From: Bacteroidota bacterium
GTDB taxonomy: Bacteria > Bacteroidota > Bacteroidia > Bacteroidales > F082
Direction of reading: 5' to 3'
DNA length: 64,000 nucleotides
Assembly: GCA_016845105.1 (NCBI GenBank)
Contig: JAERTF010000142.1
Span: forward strand, 1-64,000
Both the position numbers and the translations under genes were made by a program. Under the pieces are notes generated by a model. It was given only the letters and a program-made list of their open reading frames with translations, ran no database searches and was not told the DNA's origin. Positions 37,118-41,839 of the stretch are shown piece after piece. How positions within the stretch are numbered: position 1 is the stretch's first letter; every line of letters begins with the position of its first letter.

Positions 37118-37133
37118 GAGATGCAATAAGAAC

Positions 37134-37166
37134 TTAATATTACCCTAATATTAAGTAAATGTTAAG
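37134..37166 (-). promoter_or_regulatory. Pho-box-like array: three contiguous 11-mers
   Basis: Minus strand CTTAACATTTA/CTTAATATTAG/GGTAATATTAA. Confidence 0.7.
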
Positions 37167-37442
37167 TGTGAAATAATGAAGAGACTCAATGTGATAATGC
37201 TGTAATTATCAGTGCAATTGCCTAAAAACAAAAGCTTTTGATGTTTGTTGACTGATGTATGATATGATTTTTAAATCGGTAAGATCTTCATTCAACTACC
37301 CGGTTGGTATGAAGTGGTAATTTGGTACAATTAAAACTATAAATAATGAAGAGGAAATGCTTAGCGCTATAGTAGATCGTGATTAAACCTAAGATCTATT
37401 TAAAAAAAGATAGTTAACTTTTTTTGCTCAATACAAAGAGTA

Positions 37443-37904
37443 TCAATCATATTTTTTTTCTGATATAAGCTTGTTGTTTTCGTCCCACATATACCAGTTT
37501 CCAACTTTTTTGCCATGGTCGTAATTCATTTCATAACGCTTATTTCCGTTATCGTCATATATCATCCATTTGCCATGTTTAAGATCTTTTTCATAGTGTG
37601 CTTCAGCAGTTTTTTGTCCTGCCAAATTCCAGGTTAACCATGTACCTGCTTTAAACCCATCCGTATATTCACGTTGTTCTTTTTTCTTATCCAATGAATG
37701 ATAGTAAATGGATGTGCCGTTTTCAAGTCCATCTTTGAAGTGTCGTTCTGATTCCAGGTTGCCATCTTTGAAATAGTTTTTATGAATACCCGAAAAAAGC
37801 TTACCATTTTTATAGTATTTGCCGTCTTCATTTTTTACCAGATCCTGTGCATAGGCACCTTGAATTGAAATAACAATAGTTATTAATAGTATTAGTTTCT
37901 TCAT
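37443..37904 (-). CDS. MORN-repeat/YwqK-like secreted protein
   Basis: Signal peptide; YYKNGKLFSGIHKNYFKDGNLESERHFKDG repeats. Confidence 0.8.
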   Translation of the reverse strand: MKKLILLITIVISIQGAYAQDLVKNEDGKYYKNGKLFSGIHKNYFKDGNLESERHFKDGLENGTSIYYHSLDKKKEQREYTDGFKAGTWLTWNLAGQKTAEAHYEKDLKHGKWMIYDDNGNKRYEMNYDHGKKVGNWYMWDENNKLISEKKYD

Positions 37905-37963
37905 TGTTTCGATTTGTTACAAAGATAGTGATTACGATGTAAATTTCAAAAAGAGGTAAATAA

Positions 37964-37993
37964 AAAAGACAAACTCATATGAATTTGTCTTTT
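37964..37993 (-). terminator. Rho-independent-like hairpin downstream of 38018..38341
   Basis: AAAAGACAAA - 10 nt - TTTGTCTTTT, perfect 10-bp arms, with a T-rich flank on the minus strand. Confidence 0.7.
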
Positions 37994-38017
37994 AGTAATT
38001 TTTAAATAAACTGTTAA

Positions 38018-38472: not shown

Positions 38473-40170
38473 TTACTTGGTAAGGTATTTATCAAATAAT
38501 GTCCATCCTTGTACCCAGTTGGTTTCTGGGTTTATGGCACCCTTGTAGTTAACTTGTGTAAACCACGGGTCAACAGGTAGGTCGGCCATGTTTTGTGATA
38601 CATCGTTTGTTGGTGATATATTAAACGAAGTACCTCGAATATCAAAGCCCGGATCGAGTAATTCGTTTCCTGAGGATGTAAAATAATGTTCCAGATTAGA
38701 GTTTGCATTGGCTTCATCATCAGGAGTTACATCACTGCCAGATGAAACCGACATGAACGGAATTTCTGTCTTAAAAAAGATATTGTTTTTGATAGTTAGG
38801 TCTTCGTCTTGGAATCTATTGTACGAACTTTCTGTAACGAGCAATTCTATATCAATACACTTTTGCTGGTTATAAAAAATGGAATTGGCATAATGACCAC
38901 CAGCATTATCTCTAAAGGTTATAATCCTCTTACCAGCATCTTCGCCTTTTCCGAAGTATGTTGCGTTATAGATTATTGGACGTGAATAAGGAGTTCCGGT
39001 TTCCGGGTCAGTACCACCATCATGTTCTGCCAAACGATCACCTCTGTCGAATCCTTGTATTGCCAACCAAAACTGGCCTGTACCATGATATCCTTGATCA
39101 TAGTCAAATGAATCATCACCACAAAAAGCGACTAGGATGTTTTTTAACCTAGCTGCCCCGCCAAATATTTCAACACCATCGTCGCGGTTGGCAAAAACTT
39201 CAATATACTCAATTGTAGTTTGGCTACCAACAGCACCAAGAGTTAATCCATTAATTTCATTGCCCTCACCAATGTCGGTGCCACCATGGCGTATCGATAC
39301 ATACCTTAGTATGCCCGAGTTATCGTTGTCATTATTGCCACCATAAATTCCACGTGGTTCAGTTTGAGGAATTCCTTCAATTTGCTGCTCGTTTGGTACT
39401 GTGTTAAGAGTTGCATTCCCTAGTATTATCACTCCTCCCCACAATCCGTCATCGAGGTTAGCAACCGACCCATTTAAATCATCTGCCTCAGCGGTAAAAA
39501 TGATTGGCTTTTCACTAGTTCCTTCTGCAATGAGCATTCCATTACGGGATACAATCAGGGCAGAGGCGTTTTCACCTTGACCACCTTTGCCTTTTATTAT
39601 TGTTCCTGGTTCAATTATTAATGTTTGTCCATCATTTACAAAAACAAATCCATCTAATATATAGATGTTGTTTGATGTCCATGTTGTTGTTCCGGTTCCA
39701 GCTCCATCGTCTTTTATAATTATTGTTTCGTGTGATGTTCCATCAATTGCAACTGATTTGGTTTGCAATTCACTCATTGCCACACCTTCAAAATTGTATA
39801 TACTGGTTCCGTTTTTAGGTTTTACGGTTATAATATCGTCATTCAAAGGTGCGTTCTCAAATGTTACTTTGATATTTGCTGTTTTTTGTGAAGCCGAATG
39901 AGTAACAATGAAATTATTGGTTGAAATAATAATGTCATCTAGAAGAAGTGTAAAATTATCCCTAGTTAGTTCACCTGTTTTATTGGCATTGCTATAGACG
40001 CCTTCACTAAAACGTATTGTTAGATTAAATGTTAGTTCGCTCCCGTCAATGGACAACGAATTCATAACAGGTGCATTGCCGGCTGGTTCGGGATTGTCAT
40101 CTTTCTTACAGGATATTGTTGTTGTTGCAATAACTACTATTACAAGTATTATATTTAATAACGCTTTCAT
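38473..40170 (-). CDS. Beta-helix-like surface lipoprotein (paralog B)
   Basis: Lipobox TTISCKKDDNPEP; LIIEPGTIIKGKGGQGENASALIVSRNGMLIAEGT; paralog of 35370..37058. Confidence 0.8.
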   Translation of the reverse strand: MKALLNIILVIVVIATTTISCKKDDNPEPAGNAPVMNSLSIDGSELTFNLTIRFSEGVYSNANKTGELTRDNFTLLLDDIIISTNNFIVTHSASQKTANIKVTFENAPLNDDIITVKPKNGTSIYNFEGVAMSELQTKSVAIDGTSHETIIIKDDGAGTGTTTWTSNNIYILDGFVFVNDGQTLIIEPGTIIKGKGGQGENASALIVSRNGMLIAEGTSEKPIIFTAEADDLNGSVANLDDGLWGGVIILGNATLNTVPNEQQIEGIPQTEPRGIYGGNNDNDNSGILRYVSIRHGGTDIGEGNEINGLTLGAVGSQTTIEYIEVFANRDDGVEIFGGAARLKNILVAFCGDDSFDYDQGYHGTGQFWLAIQGFDRGDRLAEHDGGTDPETGTPYSRPIIYNATYFGKGEDAGKRIITFRDNAGGHYANSIFYNQQKCIDIELLVTESSYNRFQDEDLTIKNNIFFKTEIPFMSVSSGSDVTPDDEANANSNLEHYFTSSGNELLDPGFDIRGTSFNISPTNDVSQNMADLPVDPWFTQVNYKGAINPETNWVQGWTLFDKYLTK

Positions 40171-40185
40171 GTATCAATTTTTTTG

Positions 40186-40193
40186 CAAAAATC
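40186..40193 (-). promoter_or_regulatory. Candidate -7 octamer GATTTTTG for the 40170 gene
   Basis: TTTG-ending octamer exactly 16 bp from the 11-mer repeats. Confidence 0.45.
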
Positions 40194-40209
40194 GACATCA
40201 CGTATTAAA

Positions 40210-40242
40210 TGATTATTAACCTAATATTAAGTAATAGTTAAC
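40210..40242 (-). promoter_or_regulatory. Pho-box-like array: three contiguous 11-mers (a possible fourth at 40199-40209)
   Basis: Minus strand GTTAACTATTA/CTTAATATTAG/GTTAATAATCA (TTTAATACGTG). Confidence 0.7.
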
Positions 40243-40243
40243 T

Positions 40244-41839
40244 TTACTTTGCCTCGGGCTGATGTTGAGGACGCAATAAGTCGTTAATAGTTTTTACCGG
40301 ATTAAACGTTATAATTGGTGCTTCAACAAAAATAGTAATCCAATCAGCCATGGCACCATTCCATAACCCCGGTAGCTCCTGAGCTTTAAGTTCTTTGCCA
40401 CCTAGTGATTTTGATGAAATAAACCCTGTATTTAGGTCAATAAATTCCTTTAGATCGAAATTATCTCCATTATAATCTTTTACACCACAAACCAGATCAA
40501 CAGGATTAAAATGAGTGGCATTTGAAACAATATCCTTTTGGGTTTTATTATTTAAATCCATTTGAGATGATTCAACAATTTGTAGGGTTTGATTATCATC
40601 TTCATCAATAACCCAAAATGGTCCGCCACCTGGTTCACCTTCATTTTTTACCATCCCACAAACACGTATTGGACGGTTTAGTTTATTGAATAGAAAATCA
40701 ATTTTTTCCATTTCGTCATAACCTTGGTAGGCATCAGGGATGAATATCATTAGATCTTTTTTTGCAAAATCAAGAATCTTATTTAACTCATCTTCAGATG
40801 CATTTCCACCATCAAGAATATCCAAAAATTCAAAAGTTTGGGCTTGTAGTTTTAGTAGTAATCCACCAATTACTTTTTTATATAGATAGGTAGTGTCTCT
40901 TAATCTATCGGGAACAATATTATCAATGTTTTTAACAAATACAATTTCACCTTCCAGGTCCATCAAATTCTCAATTAATGCACCATGTCCACCTGGTCTG
41001 AAAAGTATTGATCCATCACCTTTTCTGAATGGCTCGTTATCAGGAGTTACTGCTATAATATCGGTATATGGTTTTTGTTGAGAAAAATCGACACTATATT
41101 CTACGTTAAACATGTTTTCATATTTAACTTTTTTCGATTTAACCTTTTCTTCAAATTTATTTTGATGTTCGGGAGAAACCGTTAAATGAACCCGTGATAC
41201 ACGATCTTTGTCTGTTGAATAGTGGGCTCCTTCAACTAAATGTTCTTCAACTGAAGTTCTTGGCCCATCAGAATAATCATGAAATAACAATAGCCCTTTT
41301 GGCCGATTGGCATAATTCATTCCCTTTTCACCGATGAAATAATCAAGAACTGGATTAAAATCAAAATCGTTTATAAGTTTTGTTATGTCAAGTCCATCAT
41401 CTGCCATAAGCTTTTTTAACTCATTGTAGAATGCAAATTTTTCAATGTTTGTGAAAAAATAGTAAACCGAATTAAAACTCTTATCTGCTTGATAACTATC
41501 AATATCCTCAGAAGTTTTATTATATGATTGCCGGAATTCAAATAGATGTTTAAACATTCTACTTGCTGCACCGGATGCCGGAACAAATTTCAGAATTTCG
41601 TAATCTTTATTGTTTTCGTCAAAATATGTGGCAAGCTCAGTAACTTGTTCTTTGGTATAGCTATTTAAGCCATTACCTGGTGTTGCAGCTGCATATAAAT
41701 TTATATATGGAAACCCGGTTTTAAAATTATTAATTTGCTTCTCTATTAATTCAGGAGTTAGTCCTTTATCTTTTATTTGATTTACATCTTTATCTGAAAA
41801 CATCTTGCTTATATTTTTGGATAAAAATAAATAATTCAT
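40244..41839 (-). CDS. DUF4301 family protein
   Basis: FVPASGAASRMFKHLFEF...FRPGGHGALIENLMDL; likely start near 41803 (MFSDKDV). Confidence 0.82.
   Translation of the reverse strand: MNYLFLSKNISKMFSDKDVNQIKDKGLTPELIEKQINNFKTGFPYINLYAAATPGNGLNSYTKEQVTELATYFDENNKDYEILKFVPASGAASRMFKHLFEFRQSYNKTSEDIDSYQADKSFNSVYYFFTNIEKFAFYNELKKLMADDGLDITKLINDFDFNPVLDYFIGEKGMNYANRPKGLLLFHDYSDGPRTSVEEHLVEGAHYSTDKDRVSRVHLTVSPEHQNKFEEKVKSKKVKYENMFNVEYSVDFSQQKPYTDIIAVTPDNEPFRKGDGSILFRPGGHGALIENLMDLEGEIVFVKNIDNIVPDRLRDTTYLYKKVIGGLLLKLQAQTFEFLDILDGGNASEDELNKILDFAKKDLMIFIPDAYQGYDEMEKIDFLFNKLNRPIRVCGMVKNEGEPGGGPFWVIDEDDNQTLQIVESSQMDLNNKTQKDIVSNATHFNPVDLVCGVKDYNGDNFDLKEFIDLNTGFISSKSLGGKELKAQELPGLWNGAMADWITIFVEAPIITFNPVKTINDLLRPQHQPEAK

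What the first reader, a model, noticed from the sequence alone, without database searches (positions are those of the whole stretch)
37131..40245. Three promoters share an 11-bp tandem-repeat box at a fixed distance from the -7 octamer (candidate Bacteroidota Pho box)
Upstream of 37058, 38341 and 40170 (all minus strand) there are three contiguous 11-mers: CTTAACATTTA/CTTAATATTAG/GGTAATATTAA; CTTAACATTAA/GTTAACATAAA/GGTAACTTAGG; GTTAACTATTA/CTTAATATTAG/GTTAATAATCA. In all three cases exactly 16 bp separates the array from an octamer ending in TTTG (TACTTTTG, ACTATTTG, GATTTTTG). The 11-bp periodicity and the TTAAC core resemble PhoB/PhoP direct-repeat boxes of other phyla. The position overlapping the -33 region fits a class II activator. 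Assignment to PhoB is inference.
Basis: partly seen in the sequence, partly recalled or inferred. Interest (0 to 1): 0.85.

Follow-up and report, generated by a model that had tools for sequence, protein, structure and literature searches.

The report
Phosphate-starvation switch in Bacteroidota promoters
Three neighbouring genes for outer-surface proteins share a repeated 11-letter DNA signal at a fixed distance from the promoter, and the same signal sits in front of phosphate-transport genes in related bacteria, so it is very probably the docking site of the phosphate-starvation regulator PhoB in this phylum, where the site had hardly been described.

Summary
Three 33-bp arrays of three 11-bp direct repeats lie exactly 16 bp upstream of an NNNNTTTG octamer. 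A profile trained only on other genera ranks them 1st, 2nd and 3rd in the host genome (E 7.6e-8, 7.5e-7, 0.0036). The Pho-box reading is well supported. The downstream genes are a TonB-dependent transporter and two pectin-lyase-fold lipoproteins related to the Pi-starvation-induced FI/FII/FIII proteins of Flavobacterium johnsoniae, and a small CarboxypepD_reg protein. In 7 relatives the lipoprotein gene adjoins one response-regulator family, orthologous to PhoB of the Flavobacterium phoBR operon. The same array precedes pstS in other Bacteroidales, the PHO4 phosphate transporter (including this genome's own), phosphate-selective porins and several phoB genes. TTTG lies at one helical phase (offset 9 mod 11) in 28 of 31 promoters of other genera. 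In the host genome the strict array is confined to this locus, with degenerate versions at PHO4 and phoBR; pstS and phoU were not found. Most likely mechanism: phosphorylated PhoB binds the head-to-tail units over the -33 region and activates transcription from the -7 element. PhoB binding and Pi response were not shown here. The TTTAACA core is known from Riemerella PhoP; no Pho-box layout was found in the literature.

The parts
37134..37166 (-). Array 1: CTTAACATTTA CTTAATATTAG GGTAATATTAA, upstream of the lipoprotein gene at 37058
   Evidence: rank 1 in the genome with an independent model
37110..37117 (-). -7-like octamer TACTTTTG of promoter 1, 16 bp below the array
38400..38432 (-). Array 2: CTTAACATTAA GTTAACATAAA GGTAACTTAGG, upstream of the small CarboxypepD_reg gene at 38341
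   Evidence: rank 3 in the genome
38389..38399 (-). Fourth in-register unit CTTAATCAAAA of array 2
38376..38383 (-). -7-like octamer ACTATTTG of promoter 2
40210..40242 (-). Array 3: GTTAACTATTA CTTAATATTAG GTTAATAATCA, upstream of the lipoprotein gene at 40170
   Evidence: rank 2 in the genome
40199..40209 (-). Fourth in-register unit TTTAATACGTG of array 3 (weaker)
40186..40193 (-). -7-like octamer GATTTTTG of promoter 3
38473..40170 (-). BH2: 565-aa predicted lipoprotein (Cys21), N-terminal beta domain plus pectin-lyase-like beta-helix
   Evidence: best PDB fold match pectate lyase Pel9A, weak
38018..38341 (-). Small exported stand-alone CarboxypepD_reg protein, 107 aa
35370..37058 (-). BH1: 562-aa lipoprotein, paralogue of BH2 (61% identical)
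32427..35258 (-). TonB-dependent transporter, 943 aa, same strand 111 bp after BH1 (probably one operon)
   Evidence: the BH-TBDT order is conserved in relatives

Best explanation
The arrays are Pho boxes of the Bacteroidota type: three to four head-to-tail 11-bp units with consensus (C/G)TTAA(C/T)ATTA. When phosphate is scarce, the sensor kinase next to phoB (contig C30) phosphorylates PhoB. PhoB subunits bind adjacent units on one face of the helix from about -61 to -29 (to about -18 with a fourth unit), taking the place of the -33 element. They recruit RNA polymerase with the Bacteroidota primary sigma factor to the -7 element, whose TTTG starts 20 bp below the third unit. This switches on the surface lipoproteins, the TonB-dependent transporter and the small CarboxypepD_reg protein, which together would help scavenge phosphorus outside the cell. 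Shown: the arrays, their phase, their conservation and their repeated placement before phosphate genes. Inferred: PhoB binding, phosphate dependence, activation rather than repression, and the role of the gene products.
For: 11-bp periodicity upstream of BH/CPD genes in other genera: TTAAY-type words lie 11, 22 and 33 bp apart 44, 23 and 15 times, no other distance more than 10 times. TTTG at offset 9 mod 11 in 28 of 31 promoters, with arrays picked without using TTTG. BH promoters scoring 10 or more: 23/38 against 11/212 control upstream regions, Fisher p 1e-14. The two top-scoring controls proved to be PHO4 phosphate transporters in loci that also hold the PhoB-family gene. Two-unit array upstream of PHO4 in at least 14 of 19 genes, including this genome's C33 gene. 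Array at pstS in about nine of 30 PstS hits, TTTG at +20 in L132, L135, L136, L151. R1 hits upstream of phosphate-selective porins in two genomes, DUF47/PhoU_div genes in two Flavobacterium species, phoB and PHO4. A PhoB-family regulator adjoins the BH gene in 7 of 40 loci; its orthologue here is followed at once by a histidine kinase. It is 58-62% identical to PhoB of the Flavobacterium phoBR cluster, whose layout (GT, OprP, PhoR, PhoB, TBDT, lipoprotein) matches Fjoh_0541-0546 (PMC8115612), and its recognition helix nearly matches E. coli PhoB. Published: FI/FII/FIII and their TBDTs are strongly Pi-induced (PMC8115612); B. fragilis PhoB binds pstC DNA (PMC3547664); R. anatipestifer PhoP has a TTTAACA core (PMC9603813).
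Against: No binding or expression data for this organism. In this genome the strict array is found only at this locus. Its PHO4 promoter has two good units and no TTTG in place, and its phoBR array is weak (W2 11.7, shuffle p 0.013). The F. anhuiense and F. hibernum phoB promoters have no clear array. Some Flavobacterium hits precede genes with no obvious phosphate role: GH1 glycosidases, a second OmpR-type regulator, sucC. The regulator misses the curated PhoB cut-off TIGR02154 (212.9 against 296.2 bits).
Confidence: 0.87

Rival explanations
1. The arrays bind a different OmpR-family regulator (ArcA-like, or the second Flavobacterium regulator with an array in its own promoter), and the link to phosphate genes is secondary.
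For: The Riemerella PhoP motif was reported as ArcA-like (PMC9603813). The best Flavobacterium R1 hits sit upstream of a second OmpR-type gene only 32% identical to G000 PhoB. OmpR-family regulators often bind 10-11-bp direct repeats (general knowledge).
Against: The gene set is phosphate-centred: PHO4, pstS, OprP, DUF47, phoB, FI/FII-type lipoproteins. The regulator beside the BH genes is the PhoB orthologue, not the second one.
Confidence: 0.09
2. Promoter similarity inherited from tandem duplication of the BH genes, without regulatory meaning.
For: BH1 and BH2 are 61% identical paralogues in one cluster.
Against: The unrelated CarboxypepD_reg gene carries the array, and so do pstS, PHO4 and porin genes elsewhere. 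Array and phase persist among genera while the flanks diverge.
Confidence: 0.02
3. A generic AT-rich or curved upstream element, equally common in genes.
For: The genome is about 66% A+T. Loose versions of the pattern (up to 3 mismatches) are no commoner than the reversed control.
Against: Strict scores are rare: 0.3% of 200-nt windows reach 20, true sites included. Markov sequence gives none at 20 or more with the full model. Spacing is exactly 11, 22 and 33 bp.
Confidence: 0.02

Closest known systems
Pho box of E. coli PhoB
   Same: 11-bp direct repeats overlapping the upstream promoter element at fixed distance from the core element; upstream of pst and phosphate genes; regulator with a nearly identical recognition helix.
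   Different: Unit (C/G)TTAAYATTA instead of CTGTCAT-type; three to four units; locked to the Bacteroidota -7 element (TTTG), not a -10 hexamer (E. coli details from general knowledge).
PhoP box of Bacillus subtilis
   Same: TTAACA-like core in 11-bp-spaced direct repeats (general knowledge; not tested here).
   Different: Different phylum, sigma factor and regulon.
Riemerella anatipestifer PhoP DAP-seq motif (PMC9603813)
   Same: Phosphate-starvation-induced regulator of a Bacteroidota; core TTTAACA; one EMSA target is a TonB-dependent receptor.
   Different: In the passages read it is described only as an ArcA-like motif upstream of hundreds of genes: no 11-bp array or -7 phase, and discussed as a virulence and redox regulator.
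FI/FII/FIII lipoprotein-TBDT clusters of Flavobacterium johnsoniae (PMC8115612) and Caulobacter ElpS (PMC2996285)
   Same: Low-Pi-induced lipoproteins paired with a TonB-dependent receptor; in F. johnsoniae a pectin-lyase-fold member lies in the phoBR operon.
   Different: The terms promoter, motif and Pho box do not occur in PMC8115612. The window proteins are about 29-34% identical to the Flavobacterium FII-position protein.

Membership tests
Pho box | Direct repeats with 11-bp period | tested here: met
Pho box | Fixed helical phase to the core promoter, overlapping the upstream element | tested here: met
   TTTG at 9 mod 11 in 28/31 promoters; no transcription start mapped
Pho box | Present upstream of phosphate transport and regulation genes | tested here: met
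   pstS, PHO4 including own genome, porins, phoB in some genomes
Pho box | Genome-wide set of sites in the same genome | tested here: inconclusive
   Strict sites only at this locus; PHO4 and phoBR sites degenerate; each model scan scored only 133-150 candidates
Pho box | Bound by phosphorylated PhoB | not testable with these tools
   needs EMSA or footprint; B. fragilis PhoB binds pstC DNA (PMC3547664)
Pho box | Phosphate-dependent expression of the downstream genes | not testable with these tools
   only by homology to Fjoh_0545/0546, 3856/3857, 4889 (PMC8115612)
PhoB equivalog TIGR02154 | Score above curated cut-off | tested here: not met
   212.9 against 296.2 bits; so it is called PhoB by orthology to the Flavobacterium phoBR-cluster protein, not by this model
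PhoBR two-component pair | OmpR-type regulator with adjacent HisKA kinase | tested here: met
   L131: regulator 6626-7312, kinase 5579-6622

The most novel reading that the evidence does not exclude
This is the general Pho box of Bacteroidota: three to four 11-bp (C/G)TTAAYATTA units locked in helical phase to the -7 element of a divergent primary sigma factor, shared by Bacteroidales and Flavobacteriales. It defines a phosphate regulon built on PHO4, surface lipoproteins and TonB-dependent transporters instead of Pst, with a new conserved member, a stand-alone CarboxypepD_reg protein.
Probability: 0.7. Interest if true: 0.72.

Novelty: new variant of a known kind. Interest (0 to 1): 0.64.

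Why it matters
Bacteroidota are major phosphorus recyclers in soil, sea and gut, and their phosphate response differs from the E. coli model: many lack Pst, and the top-induced genes are uncharacterised surface lipoproteins and TonB-dependent transporters. A PhoB site that can be read from sequence would let the regulon be predicted in any genome of the phylum, including uncultured ones. It would also show how an OmpR-family activator works with a polymerase that uses a -33/-7 promoter.

Tried and rejected
PhoU (TIGR02135) and PstS (TIGR02136) in the own genome: not found, so no pst promoter to test there; the genome is about 95% complete. F. johnsoniae genome: no primer sequence was found in the papers read. 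I took its GldM sequence from the PDB entry I remember as F. johnsoniae (6ys8; the tool does not name the organism) and scanned genome contigs; close Flavobacterium species were found but not F. johnsoniae, so those were used. PDB sequence search of the transporter and lipoprotein: no hits. Generic AT-rich explanation: rejected. Loose whole-genome patterns (3 mismatches): no excess over the reversed control, only the top hits are informative. Structure: pLDDT 79, weak matches to pectate lyases, used only to support the fold class. Some automatic start codons are wrong; the array sequences are not affected.
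Full report
CHECK OF THE OBSERVATION. The three arrays exist as written, on the minus strand at 37166-37134, 38432-38400 and 40242-40210. Each is followed by exactly 16 bp and an octamer ending in TTTG at 37117-37110, 38383-38376 and 40193-40186. A fourth, weaker unit follows in register at two of the three promoters. The pattern with fixed spacing occurs without mismatch three times in the 4,501,363-base host genome, all here; apart from register-shifted hits inside these same arrays, the next site has two mismatches. 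Because that pattern was drawn from the sites themselves, I built a profile only from 27 promoters of other genera (A1/R1). R1 ranks the three window sites first, second and third in the whole genome (E 7.6e-8, 7.5e-7, 0.0036; next 0.07). As a plain weight matrix it scores them 42.0, 40.6 and 25.6; other window sites outside this locus score at most 9.2, and 9 Mb of third-order Markov sequence gives none at 20 or more.

WHAT THE GENES ARE. Promoters 1 and 3 serve two paralogous predicted lipoproteins (562 and 565 aa, 61% identical) with an N-terminal beta domain and a beta-helix whose best, weak, PDB matches are pectate lyases. Promoter 1 probably also serves the TonB-dependent transporter that follows. 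Promoter 2 serves a 107-aa exported protein that is little more than a CarboxypepD_reg domain. The lipoprotein-transporter pair is conserved in relatives. In F. johnsoniae, homologous pectin-lyase-fold lipoproteins (FI, FII, FIII) and their TBDTs are among the genes and exoproteins most induced by phosphate depletion, and FII with its TBDT lies in the phoBR operon (PMC8115612). The Caulobacter relative ElpS is made under phosphate starvation and is also paired with a TonB receptor (PMC2996285).

CONSERVATION AND PHASE. The matrix of the window's nine 11-mers was run on upstream regions of homologues in other genera. Of 38 lipoprotein promoters 60.5% score 10 or more, against 5.2% of 212 control upstream regions from the same loci (Fisher p 1e-14). 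TTAAY-type words are spaced 11, 22 and 33 bp (44, 23, 15 cases; no other spacing above 10), so four units are often present. In the 31 promoters whose best array scores 10 or more, TTTG lies at offset 9 modulo 11 in 28, and no other residue has more than 2. The arrays were chosen without using TTTG, so this is an unbiased sign of helical phase locking. Related genomes are not independent samples, so the p-values are indicative.

LINK TO PHOSPHATE. (a) The two best-scoring control genes proved to be PHO4 phosphate transporters in loci that also hold the PhoB-family gene. (b) A targeted search then showed the array CTTAACAATTT CTTAATATAGG or a variant upstream of at least 14 of 19 PHO4 genes, including this genome's own on contig C33 (CTTAACAATAA GATAATATTAG, score 18.8). 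(c) PstS was not found in this genome, but pstS genes of other Bacteroidales carry the array, several with TTTG at +20 (L132, L135, L136, L151) or one unit further (L133, L154). (d) In 8 of 40 lipoprotein loci an OmpR-type regulator is a neighbour. Seven are one family, whose orthologue here is at G000 C30:42635-43294, followed directly by a histidine kinase. (e) The Flavobacterium phoBR cluster (GT, phosphate-selective porin, PhoR, PhoB, TBDT, lipoprotein) has the layout described for Fjoh_0541-0546; its PhoB is 58-62% identical to the regulator here, and arrays precede the porin in two species and the lipoprotein or TBDT in others. (f) R1 scans of Flavobacterium and Bacteroidales genomes give hits upstream of phosphate-selective porins, DUF47/PhoU_div genes, a choice-of-anchor-I lipoprotein of the same general kind as the Pi-induced Fjoh_3414, a secreted nuclease, phoB, PHO4 and further CarboxypepD_reg proteins.

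MECHANISM. With TTTG at -8 to -5 (convention of PMC6847099), the three units span about -61 to -29 and a fourth reaches -18. The array therefore replaces the weak -33 element, as expected of an activator touching sigma region 4. The recognition helix (DRTIDVHIRKIREKI) is nearly that of E. coli PhoB. PhoB of B. fragilis is needed for pstC expression and binds its promoter DNA (PMC3547664). The R. anatipestifer PhoP motif has a TTTAACA core (PMC9603813). I found no paper in the library that defines a Bacteroidota Pho box or its geometry; most subscription journals are not held.

LIMITS. No binding, no transcription start and no Pi-response data exist for this organism. The strict array is local; PHO4 and phoBR promoters here are degenerate. 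Genome scans scored only the best 133-150 candidates per genome. F. johnsoniae itself could not be scanned. Some Flavobacterium hits (GH1, a second regulator, sucC) have no obvious phosphate role.

VERDICT. A real, strongly conserved regulatory element, best explained as the Bacteroidota Pho box: a new variant of a known kind, with the layout apparently undescribed although the core word was seen once in Riemerella.

Noticed in passing
38018-38341; also L346, L353, L359, L365: Stand-alone exported CarboxypepD_reg proteins of 107-133 aa repeatedly carry the array: a conserved candidate phosphate-regulon member of unknown function.
   Followed up: partly
L345 3918-6161 and 6331-8565: Two tandem PHO4-family phosphate transporters (747 and 744 aa) follow a prolyl oligopeptidase gene in the host genome; only the second in order of transcription has the array.
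   Followed up: partly
whole genome G000 and many same-family genomes: PstS (TIGR02136) and PhoU (TIGR02135) not found in G000, and PstS not found in most same-family genomes; PHO4 may be the main phosphate uptake route.
   Followed up: partly
L244, L245, L258: In three Flavobacterium species a second OmpR-type regulator (32% identical to G000 PhoB) has a strong three-unit array upstream.
   Followed up: no
L247, L250, L253, L268: Array-like sites ending in TTTG upstream of GH1 glycosidase genes in four Flavobacterium species; no known phosphate link.
   Followed up: no
L257 1582-2880: DUF5690 transporter-like gene in F. hibernum with an array and TTTG in phase.
   Followed up: no
37443-37904: MORN_2-repeat protein between promoters 1 and 2 on the same strand, with no array of its own.
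   Followed up: no
e.g. P0006, P0011, P0022: Longer relatives (about 960-985 aa) of the beta-helix lipoproteins carry a type IX secretion tail (PF18962), so the family reaches the surface by two routes.
   Followed up: no
31208-31600: 130-aa Lys/Ala-rich protein whose first residues (MGKGDKKTRRGKI) resemble ribosomal protein THX.
   Followed up: no
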